From Oscillospiraceae bacterium (lineage in GTDB: Bacteria > Bacillota > Clostridia > Oscillospirales > Oscillospiraceae), in NCBI GenBank assembly GCA_009781695.1, contig WQVH01000008.1:1-49477 (forward strand): a stretch of 49,477 nucleotides of DNA, given 5' to 3'. A program made the translations under genes and the position numbers. Shown piece after piece: positions 1 through 22,170 of this stretch. Below the pieces are notes generated by a model that had not been told where the DNA came from, searched no databases, and saw only the letters and a program-made list of their open reading frames with translations. Within the stretch, counting starts at the first letter, position 1. Each line of letters starts with the position of its first letter.

Positions 1-655
1 ACGTCACATCAAAGGCCAGCCCATAATCCGGATCTACCGAATATGCCGATGTTTTGGCACCTCTGAGTCCCACTTCCTCTTGCGTGGTAAATACAAAATA
101 GAGATCATATGCAGGATTTTTGAGCTGCTTGAGCGCTTCAATCATGATAAAACATCCGATGCGGTCATCGAGTGCAGGCGCAATCAACACATCCCCATTT
201 TCTGATGGTAACGTGGCATATACACAGACATCGCCAATTTTTACAAGCCTTTTTGCATCTGCTTCATCTTTAGCACCAATATCCAAATAGAGCTTATCTA
301 TGGCCATATCTTTAGGATCATCCAGACGCTCACATTGCACCACAGCCAAAAGTCCGGACGGAAATACAAACCGCTGCGCAACCAGCACTGTCGGATTAAA
401 ACCACCCACCGCAGCAAAGCGCATAAACCCCTCTTTGTCAATATGCGTCACCATAAGACCAATTTGATCCATGTGTCCGGCAAGCATCATCTTCTTGCCG
501 GGTCCTTTTTTATGGGCAATAAGATTACCCAGAGCATCTGTCCTTACATCATCAACAAGATCTTTTATTTCATCACGGATGATAGCGCTGATGGCTTGTT
601 CATGTCCTGATGTACCATTTGCTGCGCACATCTTTTTTAAAAACTCTATGTTCAT
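1..655 (-). CDS. M42 family glutamyl/metallo-aminopeptidase, partial (C-terminus beyond window)
   Basis: The first 218 residues of an M42 (TET-type) zinc/cobalt aminopeptidase read leftward off the window edge. It starts MNIEFLKKMCAANGTSGHEQ and carries the family motifs GHMDQIGLM (first metal His), ALDDRIG (bridging Asp) and TQEEVGLRGA (catalytic and ligand Glu). The C-terminal ligand His lies outside the window. The ATG overlaps the TAA of the preceding gene (TAATG), so the two are translationally coupled. Known M42 enzymes are cytosolic dodecamers that trim N-terminal residues from peptides. It is the third paralogue in the operon. Family is clear; substrate specificity is not. Confidence 0.93.
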   Translation of the reverse strand, partial: MNIEFLKKMCAANGTSGHEQAISAIIRDEIKDLVDDVRTDALGNLIAHKKGPGKKMMLAGHMDQIGLMVTHIDKEGFMRFAAVGGFNPTVLVAQRFVFPSGLLAVVQCERLDDPKDMAIDKLYLDIGAKDEADAKRLVKIGDVCVYATLPSENGDVLIAPALDDRIGCFIMIEALKQLKNPAYDLYFVFTTQEEVGLRGAKTSAYSVDPDYGLAFDVT

Positions 656-1674
656 TATCCGATCACCCTTTCTGCGCCTTTTTTGATAAAGGCCTCTATG
701 AGCTTAACCAAATTTTCATAATCATTTTTATGCATCACCGAGACAGGCGAATGGATATACCTGCATGGTACGGCGATACCGATGCATGGGGTTCCCGCTC
801 CGCCGGCGTGGTAACGCCCGGCATCTGTCGCACCCATGCCTGTGCGTCTGTACTGATATGGAATTTTATCATCTTCGGCCACCTTGACGATCGCTTCAAG
901 ATATCTTTTCGAATATATCGAAGTCATATCCATCAGTGACAGACATGGCCCTGCGCCTTGAGTGGTGACGCGCTTGCTTTCCTCAATGCCCTCCATATCG
1001 GCGCAAATCGTACCCTCAATGTTAATCACTAAATCTGCATCCAAACTTTGAGCAGCGATGGCAGAGCCTTTGAGTCCGATTTCTTCCTGTACACAGAAAA
1101 TACCTGTCACACTGATGGGCAAGTCCATTTTCATAATTTCGATAATCGCAGCACAACCGACCCGGTCATCCAGCGCTTTTGCTTTGACTTTGTTCGTGCC
1201 AAACGCAACAAATTGACTGGAAAAAGCCACAAAATCACCCTTATGCACAAGCTTTTCCGCTTCTTCTTTGGAATCGCATCCGATATCGATATACATGGCA
1301 TCTATCCCATAGACCTGCTTTTGCTCCGCTTCCTTTTGAAGATGGATGGGCTTATTGCCGATAACACCTTTGATCTTATCTTTACCGATAAGCACATGCA
1401 TGGACGGCAAAATCCGGGAATCTACACCCCACGAGGCAAATTTGAGCGTTCCGTCTCTTTCTATGCCGTTGATGCACAGCCCCACTTCGTCCATATGGGC
1501 ACTAAGCGCAATGTGCGGACTGTCTTTCTTGCCTTTCTTAAAAACAATGACATTGCCGATTCTATCCACTTTTATACTGTCTGCATGTCTTTCAAGTTCC
1601 GCTTTGATGATGTCTCTGACTTCATCTTCAAAACCCGGAAGGCCACAGGCTGAGGTTAGTTTTTCCAGAAGCAT
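655..1674 (-). CDS. M42 family metallo-aminopeptidase (second of three)
   Basis: A 339-residue complete M42 peptidase, the usual family length. It starts MLLEKLTSACGLPGFEDEVR and shows SAHMDEVGL, KALDDRVG, VQEEIGLKGS, an Asp ligand in GTICADMEG and the C-terminal IHSPVSVMH ligand region, so the active site looks intact. The start is set by a GGAGG site seven bases upstream, inside the end of the preceding gene (19-bp overlap), and the stop overlaps the next ATG. Expected role: cytosolic removal of N-terminal residues from peptides left by larger proteases. Three tandem paralogues could form mixed TET particles; that is inference. Confidence 0.95.
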   Translation of the reverse strand: MLLEKLTSACGLPGFEDEVRDIIKAELERHADSIKVDRIGNVIVFKKGKKDSPHIALSAHMDEVGLCINGIERDGTLKFASWGVDSRILPSMHVLIGKDKIKGVIGNKPIHLQKEAEQKQVYGIDAMYIDIGCDSKEEAEKLVHKGDFVAFSSQFVAFGTNKVKAKALDDRVGCAAIIEIMKMDLPISVTGIFCVQEEIGLKGSAIAAQSLDADLVINIEGTICADMEGIEESKRVTTQGAGPCLSLMDMTSIYSKRYLEAIVKVAEDDKIPYQYRRTGMGATDAGRYHAGGAGTPCIGIAVPCRYIHSPVSVMHKNDYENLVKLIEAFIKKGAERVIG

Positions 1675-2711
1675 TTTTCATCCTCCTTCTCACGGTCTTG
1701 CAGGCTGATAATGTAGTCGGACAGGAGCTTTCCGGTCATTTCAACATCTTTGATCATAAGCGTCTCTACCGTAGAGTGCATATACTTCAGCGGTATGTTG
1801 ACCACGCCGGTGCACACACCGCCTTGCGTGATGAGTATTGCATCCGCATCCGTTCCGGTTCCGCTGGGCGCAACTTCCACTTGATACGGCGTATTGTTCT
1901 TCACTGCGGTATTTTTCAAATCTTCAAAGAGCGCTCTGGTGACCGTGGGGCCAATCGTAATCACAGGTCCTTTGCCCAGCTCATAAGATTCGTGCTCTCC
2001 CAGTCCGGCTGTGCGTCCGAATACAACATCCACAGCAATACCGATATCAGGCTTGATAGCGTAGGTCGCCGTCTTGCCGCCGCGGCAACCGACTTCTTCC
2101 TGAGCGGAGGCCACAAAATAAATATCCGCATCATGATTGTAGTGTTCTAAGTTCTTTACAGCGCAATATAATGCTGCGATACCGGCGATATTATCCAGTG
2201 CTTTACACGCGACTTTATCATTTTTCAGCGAGACAAGCTCTTGCTTAAATGTGATGATATCTCCGGGCTTAACAAGCTTTTCCAGCTCTGCCTTGCTATA
2301 TCCTGTATCAATCACCATGTCGTGGAGTTCTACAGGTTTCTGTTGTTCCTTCGGCGATGTCAGATGCGGCGGCTTGATACCGATCACACCATAAACCTTT
2401 TCTCTTCCGTGAATGATAACTTCTTGAGCCAACATATTTCTGGCATCAATTCCGCCCATACGGGAAAACTTGACAAAACCTTCATCGCACAAAACAGATA
2501 CCATCATTCCGATTTCGTCCATATGCGCCATGAACATGACTTTCGGCCCTTTGCCTGTACCCTTTTTACGAGCAATAAGGTTGCCGAATTTGTCTTTTGA
2601 TACTTCGGTGTATTGTGAAAATACATCGGTCAGCACTTGTGCCAGTTCATCTTCGTAACCTGATACATGGGGTACATCGTTCATGCGCGTTAATAATTCT
2701 TTGGTATCCAA
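1656..2711 (-). CDS. M42 family metallo-aminopeptidase (first of three)
   Basis: A 351-residue M42 peptidase and the promoter-proximal gene of the operon. The TTG at 2711 is chosen because an AGAAGG site lies six bases upstream and the protein then begins LDTKELLTRMNDVPHVSGYE, as family members do. An upstream ATG at 2762 would add 17 unrelated residues. Motifs: MAHMDEIGM, KALDNIAG (Asn where the paralogues have a second Asp), AQEEVGCRGG and KYMHSTVET. The bridging Asp is kept, so activity is expected. The ALDN variant may alter substrate preference. Role: peptide catabolism in the cytosol. Confidence 0.94.
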   Translation of the reverse strand: MDTKELLTRMNDVPHVSGYEDELAQVLTDVFSQYTEVSKDKFGNLIARKKGTGKGPKVMFMAHMDEIGMMVSVLCDEGFVKFSRMGGIDARNMLAQEVIIHGREKVYGVIGIKPPHLTSPKEQQKPVELHDMVIDTGYSKAELEKLVKPGDIITFKQELVSLKNDKVACKALDNIAGIAALYCAVKNLEHYNHDADIYFVASAQEEVGCRGGKTATYAIKPDIGIAVDVVFGRTAGLGEHESYELGKGPVITIGPTVTRALFEDLKNTAVKNNTPYQVEVAPSGTGTDADAILITQGGVCTGVVNIPLKYMHSTVETLMIKDVEMTGKLLSDYIISLQDREKEDEKCFWKN

Positions 2712-2832
2712 GTCACACCTTCTTTCTACATAGCTCAGTTTGTTGCTTCTATTCACAGGCATTCAAACAACCCACGAATGATCATAGCTTATCACTTATG
2801 ATGGGTGTTTTCAACTTTTTTCAAAAAATGTA

Positions 2833-6961: not shown

Positions 6962-7179
6962 CTTTTAAACTGGATAATTTTACTCAAGATTGAATTGAGA
7001 TATCATTTGAGTCTCGTTGATGCGCACATGTATTATTGGAGTAAAATAGTCCATTTAAAATCAGAAAGGGGTGACAATACCGGCTTTGGACGCTTGGCCG
7101 ATACCAAAAACGTCACATCCACAAAGAACGTGGACACAACAATTTACCGGATTTTAAAAATTTAAGGAGGTATGAAAAT
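6962..7179 (+). ncRNA. Long structured 5' leader, type unknown
   Basis: The leader can form a long closing stem: TTTTAAA, TGGA and ATTTTACTC (about 6963-6987) pair with GAGTAAAAT, TCCA and TTTAAAA (about 7039-7060). A second stem has outer GTGAC (7071) and GTCAC (7112) with inner CGGC/GCCG. A small hairpin TCCAC/GTGGA follows at about 7118-7134. AAGGAGG (7164-7170) then precedes the start codon. It matches no riboswitch class I can name. A micro reading frame ATG-AAA-ATT-TGA at 7172 overlaps the true TTG start. Confidence 0.45.
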
Positions 7180-8337
7180 TTGAAAAAGCTCAAATGGTTC
7201 AAATCAATAGTTATGGTGACTATGCTTGTCGCACTTCTGTCAGGCTTCGCAATATCAGCTACCGCATCTGAACGCACAGACGCAGAATCTTTAAGTACCC
7301 CAGTAAACTTAGTGCTCAATAGAGGGCATATAGAAACACTTGCATTCGGAGGCCCAATGGGACTCTCATGGACTGAAGTTGAAAACAGTGATTCCTATAC
7401 GGTCTTCGTCTTTGAAGACGAAAGCACCTACAACCCAGATGAAGCATTTGCTTACGTTGAGGACATAGACGCACTGTATTTAGATGTCAATATTGAGTTT
7501 TCCGACAAGCTCAGCGAGGGACAATTTTGGTTCCGTGTTCAAGCGGTCGCAGATGATATCCCCAGTTCAGCTTTAAGTAATGCAATAGGTCCATTCACAT
7601 ACAGTTTCCATAGCGATGAATTTGCAGACAATCCCGAAGGCAGCTACGCCGTATTTGCAAATCCCGACATACCGGTCATCGTCATTGATACGCGCAGACC
7701 TGCAGAAAGAGATGATCAAGGCCATGTCGTAGGCGATATACATGTTCCGTGGCCAAATGCAGTGGCTGTAGAAGAAGGCATAACTACTCATGCAGACTTC
7801 CAACGCAATGTACTCGCCGCTTGGCACAACTTCATCGAAAATGATTTGACTGATACGCAACGTGAAAATCTTGATCCCGATATGTCGTATAAAGATATTC
7901 ACATATTCATTTACTGAGGATCCGCAAGCAGGACTGTTCCTGCGGCAAGGTCAGTTTCGACCTTGGGATTTGTAAATGTATATAACATCGGTGGATTTTT
8001 CGCAAACCCTGGAATCAGAGAAGTATATCCGGCTGTAGGTGTACCGGAGCCCGAAGAGGTAGAAGAGCCAACTGCTCCGCCGCCACCTCCTCCAGCACCC
8101 CCAGCACCTCCGGTGCCTCCGACTCCTCCTGCACCGCCGACTCCCCCAACGCCACCAGCTCCGGCAAATGAATACAGGACTTACACTGTCCGTGCCGGTG
8201 ATTCTCTGTACAGAATCGCAGGTAGGCTATTGGGCAACAGCTCCAGATGGGGTGAGATATTTGAGCTCAACCGGGATATAATAACCAACCCTCGGATGTT
8301 ACGAATCGGCTGGCAGTTACGTATACCTGCTGAGTAA
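7180..8337 (+). CDS. Secreted Fn3-rhodanese-LysM protein, probable selenoprotein (in-frame UGA at the catalytic Cys)
   Basis: A 385-residue product if the in-frame TGA at 7915-7917 is read as selenocysteine (residue 246). The TTG start has AAGGAGG nine bases upstream. Order: signal peptide (about 1-30, ends AISATASE), Fn3-like domain (about 40-145), rhodanese domain (about 160-285), Pro-rich linker (about 296-328), LysM wall-binding domain (about 332-384, YTVRAGDSLYRIAGRLLG). The rhodanese half before the TGA gives VIVIDTRRPAERDDQGHVVG and ends IHIFIY. The frame after it continues GSASRTVPAARSVSTLGFVN and VYNIGGFF, the normal rhodanese tail. TGA therefore stands exactly where the sulfur-carrying Cys belongs in a C-x4-R loop. 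A stem-loop follows at once. Otherwise it is a fresh nonsense mutation or two separate products (7180-7917 and 7963-8337). Confidence 0.75.
7922..7945 (+). promoter_or_regulatory. SECIS-like stem-loop directly after the UGA codon
   Basis: GCAGGA (7928-7933), loop CTGT and TCCTGC (7938-7943) form a 6-bp stem, extended by CC/GG across a bulge. The apical loop starts 16 nt after the UGA. Bacterial selenocysteine insertion elements are stem-loops placed like this within the coding sequence. The structure is also translated in frame. Confidence 0.55.
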
Positions 8338-8380: not shown

Positions 8381-8427
8381 GCACTGGCGTTTACGATTTT
8401 TGAAATCGTAAACGCCAGTGCTTTTTT
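8381..8427 (+). terminator. Strong intrinsic terminator
   Basis: A perfect 19-bp inverted repeat (8381-8399 with 8403-8421, loop TTG) is followed by six T. It ends transcription of the rhodanese-LysM gene. Confidence 0.93.
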
Positions 8428-9540: not shown

Positions 9541-11139
9541 CTAATATAAGAAACCAACCACAGCTAAAATCACAACAAAAAACGCACCGATTGAAAAGCA
9601 AATGCCACGGAAATTCAAATCAATCGCCCGAATACGCCTAAAAATCTTATAATTCCTATCTCCCCTGAGCACATATCGATAAACCAAAAGCCCAACGATC
9701 CAACTGGCTGTCAGAATAATCAGCTTTTCTATAAAACCATAAAACGACATTTGAAAATGCACATTGAAGAGAAAAGACATAATTTCCTCGCCGAAAATCC
9801 CACCCACAAAGCACAACACACCCAGAAAATAAATTGAAATATCACTGGACTTTGCAGTCTTCTTTCCAACAAATGACTCATCTGCCTGCCCAAACAACAT
9901 TGCGGCAAATCGGATTGAGACAAGGATCGTTCCAAGATTTATCAAAATCATCACCGTATTGACTACAGTGTCTGCACCGCTCATTATAAAATACTTAGAA
10001 ACATTGCCATTAAACAGCGGCGCACCCGTTATACCCAAAATGGCCAAAACAATCGCTATGCCAATATACTTATCCTTCTTAAAAATCCCATTGATCTTAC
10101 GCATATCACGTGTACCATACATATCTTCAAGCACACCTGCAATCAAAAACAGCGCAACCTTGAACAACGCATGGTTGATCATGTGATACAAGCTGCCTAT
10201 ATAAGAGTAAGCATCACCAATTGAAAGCCCCGCTATAATCAGACCCACCTGTGCGGTTGAGCTATAGGCCAACAGCAGCTTTATATCCACTTGCGAAACA
10301 GCCATAATCACACCAACAACCGCCGTTATAAGTCCTATGATCAAGAAAAATTCTGTCGAGGCCACAGGTGCAAAAACATCTTGGAATCGTATAAATAAAT
10401 ATATTGCACTCTTGACATGAAGCCCTGAAAGCAGCGCCGCCACGGCCGAAGGTGCCCTTGGAATGCCCTGCACTTTAGGAAGCCAACTGTATAGCGGAAT
10501 TATTGCCGCTTTAAATGCAATAGCAGTCATCAAAAGCGCATAAGGTAAAATCAGTACTTCCCTATCCAAGTTGGCAATAAACGCAGCAGCAACTTGCATA
10601 TCCAAAACACCGGTCAGAAAATAAATATACCCGATACCGAATAGATAAAACTGTATTGCCACCGTATTGGCCATTAAGAACACAAGCCCATCAAACATAC
10701 TGCGCTTGCCTTTATCGTACATAATCAACACAGCAACAACAACCGTTGCGACTTCTGCCAAGACAAAGACATTAAAAAAGTCACGGCTGAGAAAAATACC
10801 AATCAAGATACCTTCCCATATAAACATCAGCAGCCAAAATAGCTTACTGTTATCTTCGTGCAAACTATAGATCGACACAACCAAAAACAAAACAGTTGTC
10901 AGCAGCACAAAGGCCGCCGCCATCATATCCGCTCGTAAAACTACGCCCAACAGCCCTTCATAATTACCGACAAAAGTAATCACCTCACCCAACTGCCTTG
11001 TCTGCAAAAGCAGATAAACAGCAAATCCGGTGAACACGGCTTGCAAAACAATAGCAATAATCCTGCTCGTCTTGTTAGACGAAAACAGATACAAAAATAC
11101 AGCAATAACAATCGGGGTCAACACAAAATATGTTAGCAT
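9541..11139 (-). CDS. mrpD: Mrp antiporter subunit D (NuoM/ND4-like)
   Basis: A 532-residue, roughly 14-helix antiporter-like subunit of the complex I family. The conserved Glu lies in FVLAEVATVVVAVLIMY and the Lys in AFKAAIIPLYSWLPKVQG, then APSAVAALLSGLHVKSAIY; these line the proton/cation path in MrpD. It is the last gene of the operon and overlaps mrpC by 7 bp. Expected role: Na+(or K+)/H+ exchange or sodium-coupled energy conversion in the cytoplasmic membrane. It is the only large antiporter-like subunit in the cluster. Confidence 0.9.
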   Translation of the reverse strand: MLTYFVLTPIVIAVFLYLFSSNKTSRIIAIVLQAVFTGFAVYLLLQTRQLGEVITFVGNYEGLLGVVLRADMMAAAFVLLTTVLFLVVSIYSLHEDNSKLFWLLMFIWEGILIGIFLSRDFFNVFVLAEVATVVVAVLIMYDKGKRSMFDGLVFLMANTVAIQFYLFGIGYIYFLTGVLDMQVAAAFIANLDREVLILPYALLMTAIAFKAAIIPLYSWLPKVQGIPRAPSAVAALLSGLHVKSAIYLFIRFQDVFAPVASTEFFLIIGLITAVVGVIMAVSQVDIKLLLAYSSTAQVGLIIAGLSIGDAYSYIGSLYHMINHALFKVALFLIAGVLEDMYGTRDMRKINGIFKKDKYIGIAIVLAILGITGAPLFNGNVSKYFIMSGADTVVNTVMILINLGTILVSIRFAAMLFGQADESFVGKKTAKSSDISIYFLGVLCFVGGIFGEEIMSFLFNVHFQMSFYGFIEKLIILTASWIVGLLVYRYVLRGDRNYKIFRRIRAIDLNFRGICFSIGAFFVVILAVVGFLY

Positions 11140-11492
11140 TCGTCAAAATTCTCCGTGCTCATAGCTTTTACCTCGTCCCAGTCCGTTGATTTATATCTGC
11201 GCACAAGGTTAATAATCATTGTAAAATCTATTGCCGTTACAGCAAGTCCTATAATTATGGCCGTAATCATCAGCGCCTGCGGCAGAGGATCGGCTACACT
11301 ATAGACATTTTCCAAGCTTTGCCCGACCGGGGGCAAGATACCCGTTCGAAAAGCAAGCCCAAGAATAAACACAATTACGGCCATCTCAAGCAAAACAAGA
11401 CAAGCAATTGATTTTATTATGTTCTTGCTTGTCATGAGTCCGAACATTCCCATAAAAAACACGACTATGGGAACAATTTCCATCATCCGCAT
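11133..11492 (-). CDS. mrpC: Mrp antiporter subunit C (NuoK-like)
   Basis: A 119-residue protein with three membrane helices, homologous in pattern to NuoK/MrpC (SKNIIKSIACLVLLEMAVIV with the membrane Glu, then DPLPQALMITAIIIGLAVTA). AGGAGG precedes the ATG. Overlap with mrpD indicates coupled translation. It forms part of the ion channel module with MrpD. Confidence 0.92.
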   Translation of the reverse strand: MRMMEIVPIVVFFMGMFGLMTSKNIIKSIACLVLLEMAVIVFILGLAFRTGILPPVGQSLENVYSVADPLPQALMITAIIIGLAVTAIDFTMIINLVRRYKSTDWDEVKAMSTENFDEC

Positions 11493-11536
11493 GTTTTTTC
11501 CTCCTTGTCAGCAGCCTCAGTACATCACAAACGCAA

Positions 11537-12490
11537 TTAGCGCCGTCTATCAACTGCAACATATCTGTAAAATAACATCAAAAATCCTAACGCCACCTTG
11601 ATGCCTATGAGCGTATTCATCATAAGCATATAAATCGTCTGGAACAGCGGCAAATGCTGATATGGAAAATACTGATGTACACCCAAGAAAATCGCAAATA
11701 CCGCTACGAGTATGATGCCTAAAAATACGATTTTTTCATCCTTGAGCACTGTATTTATCTTGATATCATAGATATTAAATATCATATATCTGCACACGAA
11801 AAACACTGCAATCGCAACCCCGCCTTGGAATCCTCCGCCGGGTGAAATATGTCCATTGGCAATAAGATATATACCAAAAAGAATGATCACCGAACATATG
11901 CAGCGTATGGTGCGTATGGCTATCTTGGAGTGCCGCACTTCGCTTTGCTCACCATCATCGAATGAAAGCTCATCAAATCGGGAAAGGTGTACAACCGCAA
12001 CCACACTCACCACCAACATAAGTGCCTCGAACACCGTATCGTAGAGACGATAGGCCAGATAAATCGCAGTTACTGCATTTTCGCCGCCCACATCACTTTG
12101 GAACATCGTGATATACTGGTACATTAGATAGGTAGATGCATAACCGCCCGGAATAAAGCGAATAAACATCAGGCACATAATCACACAAAAGGCAAGTGCC
12201 GCCAGTCCCTGTGCTATTTGGGCAGGCTTAAAATGTGCTCTAAATGACTTGCGCCTGACCGGCTTATCCCGAAATCCATAATATTTCTCAAAACATACCA
12301 CAAGAAATATCGTAGAAAACCCACTGACAGAAGCACTGGCAAGCGCTACATCAGGTGCACCTTGAAATAGAAATATAATCGTTGTTATGAGTGAAAAAAC
12401 ACCTAGGTAAATCACCATACGGTATACTGTCTGCTCTTGCAAAATCAATATACCCGACACCACCCATAATAAGAGCAACGCTTCGGTCAT
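11537..12490 (-). CDS. Fused DUF4040/MrpA C-terminal region and MrpB
   Basis: A 317-residue membrane protein. The N-terminal 75 residues are a DUF4040 (MbhD-like) domain (FQGAPDVALASASVSGFSTI). A middle part about 95-185 resembles the MrpA C-terminal/MbhE segment (VTAIYLAYRLYDTVFEAL). Residues about 195-317 are the MnhB domain (LIANGHISPGGGFQGGVAIA). In seven-subunit Mrp systems these pieces belong to the end of MrpA and to MrpB. Here they are joined and the NuoL-like main body of MrpA is absent. The start overlaps mrpG (ATGA). Confidence 0.87.
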   Translation of the reverse strand: MTEALLLLWVVSGILILQEQTVYRMVIYLGVFSLITTIIFLFQGAPDVALASASVSGFSTIFLVVCFEKYYGFRDKPVRRKSFRAHFKPAQIAQGLAALAFCVIMCLMFIRFIPGGYASTYLMYQYITMFQSDVGGENAVTAIYLAYRLYDTVFEALMLVVSVVAVVHLSRFDELSFDDGEQSEVRHSKIAIRTIRCICSVIILFGIYLIANGHISPGGGFQGGVAIAVFFVCRYMIFNIYDIKINTVLKDEKIVFLGIILVAVFAIFLGVHQYFPYQHLPLFQTIYMLMMNTLIGIKVALGFLMLFYRYVAVDRRR

Positions 12491-12846
12491 GCCCTCTCAT
12501 CCTCTTCCAATTTTTTATCGCTGGCCGGTTTATCCCCTTTACCTCCGGTCGCCTTGTGTCCGGAAAGAAACGCAGATCGTGCAACCATATGATTACATAA
12601 CGGCCCAAGCACAATCAAGATCACCGCCAACAAGAGTAATTTGGCCGAAAAAAAACTCAACCCATGGCGAATGGCCATACCAAAGATTATCGTCAGTGTA
12701 CCTACTGTGTCAATTTTTGAGCTTGACATGATTCTCAGATAGAAGTTCTTAAAACGAAAAAGTCCAATAACACCGAACGCCATAAATATTACGCCTGCAA
12801 TAATGACGATATTGCTCACCAAGAGCTGTATTTGTGCCATCTCCAT
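12487..12846 (-). CDS. mrpG: Mrp antiporter subunit G
   Basis: A 119-residue protein with three hydrophobic helices and the MnhG pattern (VIGLFRFKNFYLRIMSSSKIDTVG). The charged C-terminal tail (about 90-119) is cytosolic. AAAGGAGG lies upstream. Small accessory subunit of the Mrp complex; four-base overlap with the next gene. Confidence 0.92.
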   Translation of the reverse strand: MEMAQIQLLVSNIVIIAGVIFMAFGVIGLFRFKNFYLRIMSSSKIDTVGTLTIIFGMAIRHGLSFFSAKLLLLAVILIVLGPLCNHMVARSAFLSGHKATGGKGDKPASDKKLEEDERA

Positions 12847-13116
12847 TTAAGTTCCAACCTCCTTTACCCTTCCCATAAAGAATAGGGCGGCAAAAATAGT
12901 CCCTACAAAACCAATCAGTGCATAAACTATTGCGAGGTCTAACAGATAGGGCAAATCATTTAAAGATGAAAACAGGACGATCACCACAATAACCTTCGTG
13001 GTCACCAGATTTAAACCCAATAATCTGTCCCAAATAGACGGACCAATGAGCGCACGTAATATACATAGCAAAATGAATGCTATAATAATTCCCAGTAAAA
13101 TCATGAGCATATTCAT
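12847..13116 (-). CDS. mrpF: Mrp antiporter subunit F
   Basis: An 89-residue, three-helix protein of the MrpF/PhaF family (GPSIWDRLLGLNLVTTKVIV, DLPYLLDLAIVYALIGFVGT). The ATG at 13116 is chosen because GAAGG lies nine bases upstream; a TTG at 13137 would add seven residues. It lies between mrpE and mrpG, the usual order. Confidence 0.92.
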   Translation of the reverse strand: MNMLMILLGIIIAFILLCILRALIGPSIWDRLLGLNLVTTKVIVVIVLFSSLNDLPYLLDLAIVYALIGFVGTIFAALFFMGRVKEVGT

Positions 13117-13118
13117 CG

Positions 13119-13613
13119 CTACTCGCCTTCCCTGCAATCGGCCTTTATCAGCCGAGCTTCCAATTTACCCTTGACTGCATTGCCGGAATCACCTTTTGGT
13201 TTAGAGGCGTTTTTTGCACGCATCCAAACAACAGTGTACTCACTATCGTGGTAATCCAAAGTGATACTTCCGGGTACAAGGGTTATGGAATTGCCCATAA
13301 TCACTTTGAGCACATTGCTGTTTAAGCGGGTATTAAAGTGTACGATATCAGCTCTGGCTCCTAAAACAATCATCTTGATCACAAAAAATCCGGACAGATA
13401 AATCTGCCCTACCAACCAAAACGGATATGTGATCAGTCTGGATAATTTAATTTCCTCAGACGGCTCGGCCGGTAAAAAGCGGTTGGCAAAAAACAAACAT
13501 GCAATACCCGCACCAACGCCTAACGCCACATCAAAAAGGCTAAAATTCTCTCTTAACACGATCCAGATCACAGCAAGTGAGAAAACGCCAAGTACTTTTC
13601 TAGAAAACCTCAT
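13119..13613 (-). CDS. mrpE: Mrp antiporter subunit E
   Basis: A 164-residue MrpE: two N-terminal helices, then the family block NSNVLKVIMGNSITLVPGSI with TLDYHDSEYTVVWM. The last 25 residues are charged. The ATG at 13613 (MRFSRKVLGVFSLAV) is preferred; a TTG seven codons upstream is possible. First gene of the operon, behind a good promoter. Confidence 0.9.
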   Translation of the reverse strand: MRFSRKVLGVFSLAVIWIVLRENFSLFDVALGVGAGIACLFFANRFLPAEPSEEIKLSRLITYPFWLVGQIYLSGFFVIKMIVLGARADIVHFNTRLNSNVLKVIMGNSITLVPGSITLDYHDSEYTVVWMRAKNASKPKGDSGNAVKGKLEARLIKADCREGE

Positions 13614-13655
13614 GGTAACTCTATAACACTCCAATGTCGCACATTATCAAAGCGC

Positions 13656-14728: not shown

Positions 14729-16249
14729 ATGGTCTCGAAAGTCAGGTCATTCGGTTTGGGCGGCATCAGGGGATATGAAGTATCTGTCGAGTGCTATGTG
14801 GCTTCTGGGTTACCTGCCTTTGACATCGTGGGGCTACCCGATGCCGCCGTCAAGGAGGCGCGCGAGCGCGTCAGAGCCGCAACCAAAACTTGCGGCATGC
14901 CCTTTCCTATGAGCAGAATCACAGTCAATCTTGCACCGGCCAATACCAAAAAAGCCGGAACCGTATATGACTTGCCTGTGATGTTGGGCATACTCTGTGC
15001 CGCAGGAAATATCACTCCACTACCCAGAGATACCGCCTTTTTGGGCGAACTGTCCCTAACCGGAGAACTGCGCCACATTTCCGGGGCATTACCTATGGCA
15101 CTCTGCGCCGGAAAACTCGGCGTAAAACATCTGTTCGTACCCGCTGATAACGCCGCAGAGGCTGCATATGCCTCCGATGTCGCCATTTACCCTGTCGCAC
15201 ATGTCCATGATCTGATGTCGCACTTAAGAGGAATTTCACCGATCAAACCTATTTCGCCCAAGACGCCCACGCCGGATTACAGTTTTGCCCCTGACTTTTC
15301 CGAGGTCAAAGGGCAAGAGCATGTCAAGCGTGCACTCGAAGTCGCCGCTGCCGGAGGTCATAACATCCTGATCGTTGGCCCACCGGGTGCAGGAAAGAGT
15401 ATGCTCGCTAAGCGTCTGCCGACAATCCTTCCGGACATGAGCCGGGACGAAATGATTGAAACGACTGAGATTCATTCTGTCGCAGGTCTTACGAGCAGAG
15501 AGCGACCCATCATGTCTTCCAGACCATTTCGTTCACCGCATCATACCGTGTCCGCACCTGCCATCGCCGGCGGCACGTCTAACCCTAAACCCGGCGAGAT
15601 ATCTTTGGCACATAATGGCATTCTATTTCTCGATGAGCTGCCGGAATTTAGTCGCGATGTCTTAGAGGCGCTGCGCCAACCACTTGAAGATGGTCAAGTC
15701 ACCATCTCACGTGCCGCATCCTCAGTCACCTATCCCAGCAGATTTATGTTGGTATGCGCAATGAACCCTTGCAAATGCGGTTGGGTCGGACATAAGTCCG
15801 GTCGGTGCATCTGTTCTGCACACTCTGTTACCAAGTATCATGAGCGCCTATCCGGGCCGCTTCTTGACCGGCTGGATATGTATATTGAAGCTCCATCTCT
15901 TGAGTATGAAGAACTTATTGAAGTCCGCGAGGCCGAATCTTCATGTACCATACGCAAGCGAGTCAATGCCGCACGCAACATGCAGCGCAGACGATATCAG
16001 GAAAGTAAAATCAGCTGCAACGCACACATTGGCACACAGCAGATTCAGGAGCATTGCGCTCTGTCTCCCGAATGCAAGAAGCTCATGCGTGATGCATATT
16101 CAAGACTGGCCATGACCGCCAGATCATATGACCGGATACTGCGTGTGGCACGAACCATTGCCGATCTTGATGATGCTGACCGCATCATGATTTCACATCT
16201 TGCAGAAGCCATACAATATCGTCAAATTTCATTTTTACAAAATGTGTGA
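14729..16249 (+). CDS. comM: YifB/ComM family Mg-chelatase-like AAA+ ATPase
   Basis: A 506-residue protein of usual family length. An N-terminal ChlI domain (about 20-140, LPAFDIVGLPDAAVKEARER) is followed by an AAA+ core with Walker A GPPGAGKSM near 217 and Walker B ILFLDELPEF. The Cys cluster CAMNPCKCGW...CICS follows, then the conserved C-terminal domain (RSYDRILRVARTIADLDD). In Haemophilus and Vibrio, ComM promotes branch migration during natural transformation. A weak GAGGT site precedes the ATG. The 268 bases upstream show no clear promoter. First of three plus-strand genes with thiI and cinA. Confidence 0.93.
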   Translation: MVSKVRSFGLGGIRGYEVSVECYVASGLPAFDIVGLPDAAVKEARERVRAATKTCGMPFPMSRITVNLAPANTKKAGTVYDLPVMLGILCAAGNITPLPRDTAFLGELSLTGELRHISGALPMALCAGKLGVKHLFVPADNAAEAAYASDVAIYPVAHVHDLMSHLRGISPIKPISPKTPTPDYSFAPDFSEVKGQEHVKRALEVAAAGGHNILIVGPPGAGKSMLAKRLPTILPDMSRDEMIETTEIHSVAGLTSRERPIMSSRPFRSPHHTVSAPAIAGGTSNPKPGEISLAHNGILFLDELPEFSRDVLEALRQPLEDGQVTISRAASSVTYPSRFMLVCAMNPCKCGWVGHKSGRCICSAHSVTKYHERLSGPLLDRLDMYIEAPSLEYEELIEVREAESSCTIRKRVNAARNMQRRRYQESKISCNAHIGTQQIQEHCALSPECKKLMRDAYSRLAMTARSYDRILRVARTIADLDDADRIMISHLAEAIQYRQISFLQNV

Positions 16250-19900: not shown

Positions 19901-22096
19901 TTAGTCTGCTTCAAGTACTGACTCTGCATCAGCTTTTCTTTTCAGCAAGCGGATCTTGTGTGAGATCACAGCCATAATCAGTGCTGAGAGGATAAATCCG
20001 GAGGTCAGTACCGAGCTGATATCGGCAAGTCCTGTCTGTGGCATCATGCTCAGCGGGACATCCTCTTCCATCAAGACCATTTCGATCTCCGGTGGTGCCT
20101 CATTTTCGTAGTAGCCCTCTTCCAACGCTGCCAGCGGCACTTCCGCTTCAAGCATATCCACAACCTCCGGAGTCGATGCCTCCTCTACTGTGGGTTCATA
20201 TACTACAGGCTCTGGGGCTTGTTCCAGTGGGGCAGGCTCATCTTCAACCACCACTGTGGGTTGATCCTCCGGCTCAGCAGATCCGCCGCCTATTACAACA
20301 GGCTCACCCGGCTCGCTGCGTACGAAAGTTCCGGGGACGAATTCGTTGGTTTGGAAGTTGAATGTTCCCGGTATAAATTCGCCGGTGTCGGGATTGAACA
20401 TTCCGGGGATAAACTGGCCGGGTTCAAAGGCAAAGTCACCGTATATAAATGCCTCTCCCTCAAATTCAAACTCATCGTAGGTGAATTCGCCGCGGATGAA
20501 CACAAACGCTCCTTCATCGAACTCACCGGGGTCGAACACGAACTGCCCTTCTTCGAATTGTCCGGGGATGAACACAAACTCTCTTTCTTCGAATTCACCC
20601 GGAGTGAAGACGAACTCTCCTTTGTCGAATTCATTAGCCTTAAACTCATATACGCCTCTGACATATATGGGTTCTTCCGGACTCTCTCCGATTTGGGGCG
20701 GTGCGGTCGGTATATCGCCCGGCTCTATCGGCGGGCTGGGTGGTTCGAGTCCAAATACCGGCATACCGGTTGAGGTATATTCGCTGAGGCCAAAGCCGGA
20801 AGACCCTGATTGATTGACAATCGTTACATTATGGACACCCACACCGTTGACTGTAAATTCATGGTATGTGTATACATTTCCGTTTTTGAGTGTCAGGGTA
20901 AATGTACCTTGCATTGCTCCATCGGATACGGTGACAATAAACGGTGCATTACCGCCTCCGGAGAGCACGATACCATTGGCTATTTCTAAATATGTGCTGC
21001 CGTTGATATTACTTGATGATGGTGGGGCATTCGGAATTTCCCGATAGCTAAAGGCTTCAACAGTTCCGTTTTCTACACCCTCTTGAAACTCATTCCACGC
21101 ATCAAGTGCTTCTTGATGGCGCGTTCGAGCATCTTGATAGGCTGCTTCTTCCACCAAGTATTTATCCATTGCGGCAAGATATTCACCCAGAACTCTGTCG
21201 TAGTCTTCCACATCAATGCCGTGTTGTGCCAGCGCTTCTTCCCATGCTTTGTACGCTGTTTCCCACTCGCCATATGCATCCAAGTAGTCTTGATATATCG
21301 AATCAAGCCACTCTTTGTGCAGTCCATCTTGCTCTTGATCAAACAAGCCTTCCTCACGAATTGCACGTGCGTCTTCTTCCGCTCTAAAGTCTGCAAGACG
21401 TTGCGCTTCAGATTTCATAAAGCTTCTATATTCTCTCATTTCACGAATTTCTTCATGTTTTTCAAACCGTGCTAAGCGTGCTGCTTCTGCCTCGTCAAAA
21501 TCTCTCTGCTCATCAATTTCACGTTGTGTTTCTTTAGCGTCAAACGCTGCCTTGTCTAATCTTTGTTGTTCATCAAAATCTTCGCGCTCTTTAATTTCAC
21601 GTGCTATCTCAGATTGGTCAAACACTTCCTTGTCTAATCTTTGTTGTTCACCAAAATCTTCGCGCTCTCCAATTTCACGCTCTTTCTCAGACAGGTCAAA
21701 CGCTTTCTCGTGTTTTTCCCTCTCTACATCATAAGCATCACGCGCATCTTTTTCGAGTTCTCTCTGAGTTTCATTCCATTCGCGTTCTGCCTCAGCTTTT
21801 TCTTCCTCGTAAGTTCGCCATTCGGTTTCCCTACGCTCGTCTTCGGCTTTATTGAACTCGTCTTCCAGCCGCTCTTGTTCCGCTTCAAAAGCAATTCTCT
21901 CTAATTCAATACGCGCGGCTTCTTCAGCTTCCCATGCTTCTTTAGCTTCTCTTTGTTCCTCTTCGAAAGCTGCTTTCTCGGTTTCATAGCGCGCAGCTTC
22001 ATCAGCTTCCCATTGCGCCATTCTTTCAGCTTCTGCTTCATTAAAAGCATCTAATTCCGGGTCTTGACCCAGGATTTCTTCATTGATGTCAGCCAT
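19901..22096 (-). CDS. Large coiled-coil/repeat surface protein with sortase-type C-terminal anchor
   Basis: A 731-residue protein. ATG 22096 is picked from two close ATGs because GAGGGGG lies eight bases upstream. Residues about 10-340 form a highly charged Glu/Arg/Ala coiled coil with repeated phrases such as EREDFDEQQRLDK. About 345-440 is a beta-rich domain (STYLEIANGIVLSGGGNAPF). About 482-589 holds nine 12-residue repeats. About 600-680 is acidic and Pro-rich. The end has MPQTG, a hydrophobic helix (SVLTSGFILSALIMAVI) and a basic tail HKIRLLKRK. No N-terminal signal peptide is visible, which is odd for a sortase substrate. Two BTAD-type promoters lie upstream. Confidence 0.88.
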   Translation of the reverse strand: MADINEEILGQDPELDAFNEAEAERMAQWEADEAARYETEKAAFEEEQREAKEAWEAEEAARIELERIAFEAEQERLEDEFNKAEDERRETEWRTYEEEKAEAEREWNETQRELEKDARDAYDVEREKHEKAFDLSEKEREIGEREDFGEQQRLDKEVFDQSEIAREIKEREDFDEQQRLDKAAFDAKETQREIDEQRDFDEAEAARLARFEKHEEIREMREYRSFMKSEAQRLADFRAEEDARAIREEGLFDQEQDGLHKEWLDSIYQDYLDAYGEWETAYKAWEEALAQHGIDVEDYDRVLGEYLAAMDKYLVEEAAYQDARTRHQEALDAWNEFQEGVENGTVEAFSYREIPNAPPSSSNINGSTYLEIANGIVLSGGGNAPFIVTVSDGAMQGTFTLTLKNGNVYTYHEFTVNGVGVHNVTIVNQSGSSGFGLSEYTSTGMPVFGLEPPSPPIEPGDIPTAPPQIGESPEEPIYVRGVYEFKANEFDKGEFVFTPGEFEEREFVFIPGQFEEGQFVFDPGEFDEGAFVFIRGEFTYDEFEFEGEAFIYGDFAFEPGQFIPGMFNPDTGEFIPGTFNFQTNEFVPGTFVRSEPGEPVVIGGGSAEPEDQPTVVVEDEPAPLEQAPEPVVYEPTVEEASTPEVVDMLEAEVPLAALEEGYYENEAPPEIEMVLMEEDVPLSMMPQTGLADISSVLTSGFILSALIMAVISHKIRLLKRKADAESVLEAD
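20330..20653 (-). repeat. Nine 36-bp repeats encoding xFxFxxGEFxxG units
   Basis: Nine in-register 12-residue units, for example EFVFIPGQFEEG, QFVFDPGEFDEG and DFAFEPGQFIPG. Phe at positions 2, 4 and 9 and Gly near 7 and 12 are the constants. The pattern suggests a stacked beta-solenoid-like or fibrous segment. Confidence 0.85.
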
Positions 22097-22136
22097 TGTC
22101 ATTACCCCCTCAAATTTGTTCGCTGAGTATAGTTTC

Positions 22137-22170
22137 ATTGTACGCTATCGTTGTCACAAGCATGTCACGA
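22137..22170 (-). promoter_or_regulatory. BTAD/SARP-type promoter P1 of the surface protein gene
   Basis: On the minus strand: GTGAC-N6-GTGACAA (22169-22151), exactly 8 bp, then -10 TACAAT (22142-22137). There is no -35 box; the direct repeats with an 11-bp period occupy its place, as at promoters activated by SARP-family regulators. Confidence 0.75.

What the first reader, a model, noticed from the sequence alone, without database searches (positions are those of the whole stretch)
7180..8337. Secreted rhodanese-LysM protein with UGA at the catalytic cysteine: probable new selenoprotein
Two open frames that look separate (7180-7917 and 7963-8337) are the same frame joined by one TGA. The first ends inside a rhodanese domain just before the active Cys; the second opens with the conserved rest of that domain, including the loop Arg and GFVNVYNIGG. 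The codon lost is exactly the catalytic one. An Fn3-rhodanese-LysM layout anchored in the cell wall with Sec instead of Cys would be an unusual extracellular sulfur or selenium carrier. Established: Sec replaces redox Cys in many bacterial enzymes and is coded by UGA plus a downstream stem-loop.
Basis: partly seen in the sequence, partly recalled or inferred. Interest (0 to 1): 0.93.

Follow-up and report, generated by a model that had tools for sequence, protein, structure and literature searches.

The report
Wall-anchored selenium rhodanese family
A gut-type bacterium appears to make a cell-surface sulfur-handling enzyme whose key residue is the rare selenium amino acid selenocysteine, and related surface proteins in a few other gut bacteria, including a spirochaete, share the same trick.

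Summary
Window 7180-8337 is one frame interrupted only by TGA at 7915-7917, exactly at the rhodanese catalytic Cys (IFIY-U-GSASR). The genome has selA, selB, Sec-containing selD and tRNA-Sec, each in two copies. I found nine rhodanese domains of this kind in seven genes of five genomes, and all nine carry TGA at that column; 29 of 29 ordinary rhodaneses examined carry TGC/TGT. A hairpin fitting the published bacterial SECIS rules follows; seven domains keep its loop GU, and two of them have a rebuilt stem. Constraint on the protein continues past the TGA into LysM.

The proteins look exported, with LysM (window, L034), S-layer homology (L020, a second gene of this genome), lipobox (two genes of a Treponema bin) or a copper-amine-oxidase-N-like domain (G1076). 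One gene lies upstream of selA and a seryl-tRNA synthetase gene; another is convergent with selA-selB.

Rhodanese-like selenoproteins are known (five forms in a 2026 review), so this is a new variant of a known kind. The chemistry (surface sulfur transfer, selenium handling or redox defence) is inferred, not shown.

The parts
7164..7170 (+). ribosome-binding site AAGGAGG, 9 nt before the TTG start
   Evidence: read directly from the sequence
7180..8337 (+). complete coding region of the proposed selenoprotein (385 aa, TTG start, TAA stop)
   Evidence: homologues
7180..7269 (+). signal-peptide-like N-terminus (KKLKWFKS...AISATAS)
   Evidence: judged by eye from the translation; no signal-peptide program was available
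7285..7600 (+). Fn3-like N-terminal domain (limits approximate)
7675..7998 (+). rhodanese domain interrupted by the TGA
7915..7917 (+). TGA, proposed selenocysteine codon at the catalytic Cys of the CX4R loop
7928..7943 (+). hairpin 1 (GCAGGA-CUGU-UCCUGC), role unknown; does not itself satisfy the bSECIS loop rule
7946..7965 (+). hairpin 2, proposed SECIS (stem CAAGGUC/GACCUUG, loop AGUUUC, 35 nt between TGA and loop)
   Evidence: meets the bSECIS rules quoted; compensating stem changes in relatives
8038..8166 (+). proline-rich linker (limits approximate)
   Evidence: translation
8182..8328 (+). LysM peptidoglycan-binding domain
   Evidence: Pfam PF01476, 29.9 bits against 20.9
8381..8427 (.). 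strong inverted repeat followed by a T run (terminator-like) between this gene and the convergent aquaporin gene
   Evidence: read directly from the sequence; no terminator scan was run

Best explanation
The gene encodes a genuine selenoprotein: an apparently exported protein with an Fn3-like domain and a rhodanese domain, held in the cell wall by LysM. UGA 7915-7917 is decoded as selenocysteine at the catalytic position by the genome's own SelA/SelB/SelD/tRNA-Sec, directed by the hairpin whose loop begins 35 nt downstream. It is one member of a family of surface-anchored Sec-rhodaneses. The most likely chemistry (about 0.5) is a surface sulfurtransferase: sulfane sulfur from thiosulfate, polysulfide or organic persulfides loads onto Sec as a selenenyl-sulfide and passes to an acceptor thiol or other nucleophile. 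Supported by computation: TGA position and conservation, machinery, SECIS-rule hairpin with compensating stem changes, constraint past the TGA, domain layout. Inferred: Sec insertion itself, export, the reaction and its substrate. The confidence below is for the selenoprotein reading, not for the chemistry.
For: TGA at the catalytic column in 9 of 9 domains of seven genes, against TGC/TGT in 29 of 29 ordinary rhodaneses examined (29 of the 44 short matches were available as loci). Own genome: two selA, two selB, two tRNA-Sec and two selD over cut-off, both selD with in-frame TGA at the selD Sec site. A rule-fitting hairpin of -6.1 kcal/mol or lower in 8 of 9 domains (rules). In seven domains GU stands at +37/+38 after the UGA in the hairpin-2 loop; with the register chosen per sequence 39 of 42 stem cells pair (7 to 17 of 42 when slid), and pairs 2 to 6 each have changes on both sides. 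Synonymous codon identity 90/140 in the 16 codons after TGA against 531/1203 upstream, five domains. pN/pS 0.30 before the TGA, 0.34 after the SECIS stretch, 0.26 in LysM. Linkage: a second Sec-rhodanese gene lies upstream of selA and a seryl-tRNA synthetase gene; L035 is convergent with selA-selB. Top fold matches are rhodaneses, and U lies between strand 206-210 and helix 214-225 of the model.
Against: No experiment. No full-length Cys orthologue was found, so the Cys/Sec pair rests on the domain alone. One of nine domains (L088a) has no convincing rule-fitting hairpin (-1.0 kcal/mol), and L088b's is reached by 631 of 2000 synonymous shuffles; shuffle counts for the other seven are 19 to 100 of 2000. 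The hairpin rule alone is weak: 6 of 28 Cys rhodaneses have one of -6.2 or lower. The published rule asks for MFE of -7.5 or lower; my hairpin-only energies for L034a, L034b, L020 and L088b are weaker, though the folded 51-nt stretches are -13.6 or lower in 9 of 9. In the fixed-register count the covariation score hardly beats a one-column slide (0.111 against 0.100); the stem evidence needs the per-sequence register. The 16-codon stretch after the TGA ranks only 24th of 267 windows in synonymous identity with five rows and 12th of 267 with six, where the top three windows lie elsewhere. G447 has selB but no selD over the cut-off. The family is rare: 2 of 19 genomes of the genus, own included. 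Pfam rhodanese falls just below cut-off in L020 and is absent in L075.
Confidence: 0.93

Rival explanations
1. It is a selenoprotein, but the Sec serves thiol redox chemistry (peroxide, disulfide or electrophile reduction) or selenite/selenium handling at the surface, not sulfur transfer.
For: A review holds that most uncharacterised prokaryotic selenoproteins very likely serve redox functions (passage). Cys rhodanese can bind selenium as a perselenide (review passage). A surface rhodanese-like lipoprotein, ExtH, lies in the Geobacter cluster whose porin mutant is defective in selenite and tellurite reduction (passages).
Against: The CX4R loop with its Arg is kept in 9 of 9 domains, as in the ordinary rhodaneses; no redox partner is fused, and none is among the neighbouring window genes scanned.
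Confidence: 0.4
2. The TGA is a nonsense mutation, decaying gene or sequencing error.
For: The assembly is fragmented (106 contigs, 2.2% contamination), so a single case could be an error.
Against: Same TGA in 9 of 9 domains, twice each within two genes; constraint past the TGA; no other stop in the frame.
Confidence: 0.02
3. TGA is reassigned (for example to Trp) or generally read through in this lineage.
For: None beyond the open frame.
Against: The YifB-like gene at 14729-16249, complete by Pfam, ends in TGA just before ThiI; two tRNA-Sec genes with UCA anticodon are present; the affected column is a catalytic Cys, not Trp.
Confidence: 0.01
4. Both products matter: a 245-aa protein ending at UGA when selenium is low and the 385-aa anchored protein when selenium is sufficient, so anchoring and catalysis are selenium-gated.
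For: The UGA precedes the anchor domain, so termination would leave an unanchored protein without its active site; the same order holds in L020, L034, L088 and L090.
Against: In the lipobox forms (L035, L075) the anchor is N-terminal, so gating of anchoring is not general; no regulatory evidence.
Confidence: 0.05

Closest known systems
Rhodanese-like domain selenoproteins, forms 1-5 (review PMC13188914, Table 1)
   Same: Sec at a rhodanese-like domain; forms 1, 2 and 4 are listed as PF00581 with UxxS or UxxG motifs, and the window's UGSA would read UxxA (passages).
   Different: The table passages give no anchor; 'termite', 'cell wall', 'S-layer', 'secreted' and 'LysM' do not occur in the main text. 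I had no sequences of those forms to align, so a listed member could share this layout. The NCBIfam models quoted for forms 3 and 5 (NF041203, NF045694) were not among the listed hits of the window protein.
Rhodanese-related sulfurtransferase selenoproteins of the Sargasso Sea (COG2897; PMC1088965)
   Same: Predicted Sec at a rhodanese-type enzyme with a predicted SECIS (3 sequences in its Table 1; passages).
   Different: COG2897 is named SseA in the 2022 review; no comparison with those sequences was made here, and no anchor is mentioned in the passages seen.
ExtH of Geobacter sulfurreducens (PMC6148476, PMC5877670)
   Same: Surface rhodanese-family lipoprotein in a gene cluster tied to selenite and tellurite reduction (passages).
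   Different: In those passages the Sec protein of the cluster is the cytochrome ExtKL; ExtH is not described as Sec-containing. No sequence comparison was made.
Single-domain rhodaneses (for example E. coli rhodanese 2jtq, GlpE 1gmx)
   Different: Unanchored single domains, 26% and 18% identity in those alignments; catalytic Cys (recalled).

Membership tests
Bacterial selenoprotein | In-frame UGA at a column that is Cys in homologues | tested here: met
   9 of 9 domains TGA; 29 of 29 examined ordinary rhodaneses TGC/TGT
Bacterial selenoprotein | bSECIS hairpin: loop 3-9 nt, G in first two loop positions, 16-37 nt between UGA and loop | tested here: met
   window: loop AGUUUC, spacing 35, 7-bp stem, -9.1 kcal/mol; 23 of 2000 synonymous shuffles reach it (rules). 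Over the family 8 of 9 domains reach -6.1 or lower; L088a does not
Bacterial selenoprotein | Genome encodes SelA, SelB, SelD and tRNA-Sec | tested here: met
   (two of each over cut-off in the window's genome)
Bacterial selenoprotein | Full-length Cys orthologue exists | tested here: inconclusive
   none found; only domain-level Cys relatives
Bacterial selenoprotein | Product contains selenium at position 246 | not testable with these tools
   needs mass spectrometry or 75Se
Rhodanese domain (PF00581) | Pfam match over the gathering score | tested here: met
   27 against 22.2 bits for the window protein; L020 21.3, L075 no match
Rhodanese domain (PF00581) | Strand - CX4R loop - helix active site in a rhodanese fold | tested here: met
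Rhodanese domain (PF00581) | Sulfurtransferase activity | not testable with these tools
   enzyme assay needed
Rhodanese-like selenoprotein forms 3 and 5 (NF041203, NF045694/TsoB) | Match to the NCBIfam model | tested here: not met
   not among the matches at E up to 1 for the window protein, nor at E up to 0.1 for six relatives
Rhodanese-like selenoprotein forms 1, 2 and 4 | Sequence similarity to the listed accessions | not tested
   their sequences were not fetched
LysM wall-binding protein | LysM domain over the gathering score behind a signal peptide | tested here: met
   29.9 against 20.9 bits; signal peptide judged by eye only

The most novel reading that the evidence does not exclude
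A surface selenium/sulfur relay: bacteria of two phyla display Sec-rhodaneses through exchangeable surface modules (LysM, SLH, lipobox, perhaps the copper-amine-oxidase-N-like domain), passed between Bacillota and Spirochaetota, to load selenium or sulfane sulfur outside the cell and to serve the Sec machinery with which two of the genes are linked (selA-serS; selA-selB). The double hairpin (nearly invariant hairpin 1 plus covarying hairpin 2) would be a two-part SECIS.
Probability: 0.2. Interest if true: 0.82.

Novelty: new variant of a known kind. Interest (0 to 1): 0.63.

Why it matters
A caller using table 11 cuts this gene in two at the TGA, so an exported selenoprotein family can go unseen. 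A catalytic Sec on a wall-anchored sulfur enzyme would be unusual, because it puts a costly, oxidation-prone residue outside the cell; it suggests a surface reaction that Cys does not do well enough. The family gives natural examples of one Sec domain combined with several surface modules, of two UGA codons in one gene (L034, L088), and of a Sec gene apparently moving between phyla, where its SECIS must work with a SelB only about 34% identical to those of the window's genome. The last point makes SECIS-SelB compatibility directly testable.

Tried and rejected
Pseudogene, sequencing error and code reassignment: rejected on nine conserved TGAs, constraint past the TGA, and TGA used as an ordinary stop nearby. 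[quoted passage not shown] its near-invariance stays unexplained and may partly be the protein sequence RTVPA. One search's count of both-side changes for hairpin 2 used one register for six sequences, which is not L075's own; I replaced it, in which I chose the register per sequence. Phage or plasmid origin: no relative in viral contigs by patterns; in plasmids only one LysM match. Rfam gave no match at gathering score over 75,969 bases of five sources including the window, which says nothing against a bSECIS. One extra motif hit (L023, nine in-frame TGAs) was discarded as chance. Misbinning of L035: its contig has FliG, GC 0.54 against 0.458 for the window, and SelA/SelB only 34-43% identical to those of the window's genome, so it looks spirochaetal; this rests on few genes, and of 195 genomes of that family only its own had the gene. 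Direction of transfer is unresolved: the five-row group is open in the tree.

Papers: PMC13188914, PMC9312934, PMC1088965, PMC6148476, PMC5877670, PMC9369223, PMC7024585 and PMC1794560 were seen as found passages only; other papers as search listings only. Searches for print precedent. None of the listed papers names a LysM- or SLH-anchored Sec-rhodanese in title or abstract start; several listings were cut (15 of 53, 8 of 32, 5 of 27), and most subscription journals are not held.

Full report
Observation. The window has ORFs 7180-7917 and 7963-8337 in one frame. Read through the only TGA (7915-7917) the frame gives 385 aa: signal-like N-terminus, a first domain, a rhodanese domain (residues 166-273, 27 bits against a cut-off of 22.2), a proline-rich linker and LysM (335-383, 29.9 against 20.9). 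The TGA sits where rhodaneses have the catalytic Cys of the CX4R loop: IFIY-U-GSASR-TVPAARSVSTLGFVNVYNIGG. A scan of the window for frames bridged by one TGA listed three cases: this one, two adjacent complete genes (YifB-like and ThiI) and a short one inside the Mrp genes that I regard as noise.

Relatives. Full-length relatives are rare. Of 99 near genomes, own included, only the window's own and one of the same genus (G015) had one; the other matches covered only the C-terminal part. 2 of 19 genomes of the genus had one, own included. In 400 family genomes only the own match was full length; the other 44 listed matches were short rhodanese stretches. The profile found 1 of 391 in the class (own), 1 of 4 in the genus of G448 (itself, with a second gene), 1 of 195 in the family of G448 (itself), and 2 of 392 relatives of G447 (G447 and G1076); these sets overlap. 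A scan of genome contigs with six peptide patterns gave two loci, a Defluviitaleaceae bin (L034) and a Treponema bin (L035), both named Emb289P1. With a gene met beside selA in the own genome (L090), this makes seven genes, nine rhodanese domains and five genomes: window and L090 (G000), L020 (G015), L034 with two domains (G447), L035 and L075 (G448), L088 with two domains (G1076). All nine have TGA at the catalytic column. L090 was not reached by the profile searches, so more such distant members may have been missed. As a control, 29 of the 44 short matches were available as loci: 29 of 29 have TGC or TGT there.

Sec machinery. The own genome has two selA, two selB and two tRNA-Sec (UCA anticodon) over the cut-offs, and two selD, each with TGA at the selD Sec site. 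G015 has selB, a TGA-containing selD and tRNA-Sec; G448 has selA, selB, a Cys selD and tRNA-Sec; G447 has selB but no selD over the cut-off, and no tRNA-Sec in the two stretches scanned. G1076 was not tested.

SECIS. Two hairpins follow the TGA. Hairpin 1 (GCAGGA-CUGU-UCCUGC) is nearly invariant in six aligned domains. Hairpin 2 has GU at +37/+38 after the UGA in its loop in 7 of the 9 domains: window, L034a, L034b, L020, L035, L075 and L088b. A 2026 review gives the bSECIS rules: loop 3-9 nt, stem 4-16 bp, G in the first two loop positions, spacing 16-37 nt, MFE at or below -7.5 (legend passage). The window's hairpin 2 fits (-9.1 kcal/mol; 23 of 2000 synonymous shuffles reach it). By the same script 8 of 9 domains have a rule-fitting hairpin of -6.1 or lower, in L090 a different one at spacing 23. 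L088a does not (-1.0), and L088b's is reached by 631 of 2000 shuffles; the counts for the other seven are 19 to 100. Of 28 Cys rhodaneses 6 also reach -6.2, so the rule alone is weak. Stronger is the comparison of stems: GGUC/GACC in five domains, CUCGC/GCGAG in L075 and GUCGC/GCGAC in L088b. With a 6-nt loop register for the five and a 4-nt one for the two, chosen by me per sequence, 39 of 42 stem cells pair, against 7 to 17 of 42 when the 3' side is slid by 1 to 3, and pairs 2 to 6 each show changes on both sides; the other register pairs 0 to 3 of 6. With one register for six sequences the count is less telling: 91.7% of cells pair over both hairpins against 33-47% when slid, but only two pairs change on both sides, and a slide of one also gives two.

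Codon-level signal. Identical codons at identical residues are 90 of 140 in the 16 codons after the TGA, against 531 of 1203 upstream and 89 of 173 downstream (five domains). The stretch ranks 24th of 267 such windows; the best five overlap it. With six rows it ranks 12th of 267 and the top three windows lie elsewhere. Folding of the 51 nt after the TGA beats most same-usage codon shuffles: 2, 48, 30, 5, 10 and 113 of 1000 shuffles reach it for window, L034a, L034b, L020, L035 and L075.

Selection. Window against L034b: pN/pS 0.30 before the TGA, 0.07 in the SECIS stretch, 0.34 after it and 0.26 in LysM (synonymous changes are near saturation, so this is a rough measure). The part behind the TGA is about as constrained as the part before it.

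Context. L090 lies upstream of selA, which is followed by a seryl-tRNA synthetase gene, all on one strand: the two enzymes that make Sec-tRNA from tRNA-Sec next to a Sec enzyme. L035 is convergent with selA-selB in a contig that has FliG and GC 0.54. L035 is 60% identical to the window domain, as is L020 of the window's genus, while SelB of L035 is 34% identical to the window genome's two SelB, which are 53% and 47% identical to that of G015. This points to transfer between Bacillota and Spirochaetota; direction is open. The tree shows one well supported split (99/98) between seven rows and L088a with L090, with L088a on a very long branch. The paper on these termite bins lists Emb289 as Embiratermes neotenicus, says Defluviitaleaceae genomes came mainly from the P1 compartment and calls P1 highly alkaline (passages). 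The window's Mrp antiporter genes would fit such a habitat, but the origin of the window's own genome is not known to me.

What it works like and what it is. By the features tested it is a bacterial selenoprotein and a rhodanese. Rhodanese-like selenoproteins are known in five listed forms, so the kind is known; the anchored Fn3-rhodanese layout is not named in the passages read or in the listings of the searches made. No listed NCBIfam match of the window protein or six relatives reached its cut-off, and none was a selenoprotein model. The sulfurtransferase reading follows from loop and fold and is inference; a redox or selenium-handling role remains a close rival, with Geobacter ExtH as the nearest surface analogue met in print.

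Noticed in passing
G000 contigs C4:80382-84962 and C37/C76/C78 (L092; L093, L090, L091): The window's genome carries two divergent sets of Sec genes (SelA pair 40%, SelB pair 49% identical, two TGA-containing selD, two tRNA-Sec); one is a compact selA-selD-selB-tRNA-Sec run. A true dual system was not separated from a contaminating contig (2.2% contamination).
   Followed up: partly
L090:1706-6260 (G000 contig C76): Second Sec-rhodanese gene (rhodanese plus three SLH) upstream of selA and a seryl-tRNA synthetase gene.
   Followed up: yes
L088:4122-8393 (G1076 contig C2): A 1424-aa apparently exported protein with two Sec-rhodanese domains, a collagen-like repeat and a copper amine oxidase N-terminal domain; its first rhodanese UGA lacks a rule-fitting SECIS.
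   Followed up: partly
window 7928-7943 and the same place in L034, L020, L075: Hairpin 1 between the UGA and the proposed SECIS is almost invariant (GCAGGACUGUUCCUGC) although it does not fit the bSECIS loop rule.
   Followed up: partly
window 9541-13634 (-): Mrp-type Na+/H+ antiporter gene cluster (Proton_antipo_M, Oxidored_q2, MnhB/MbhD, MnhG, MrpF and MnhE domains).
   Followed up: no
window 655-2762 (-): Two adjacent M42 glutamyl aminopeptidase genes.
   Followed up: no
window 19901-22138 (-): A 745-aa open frame with no Pfam match at E up to 1e-5.
   Followed up: no
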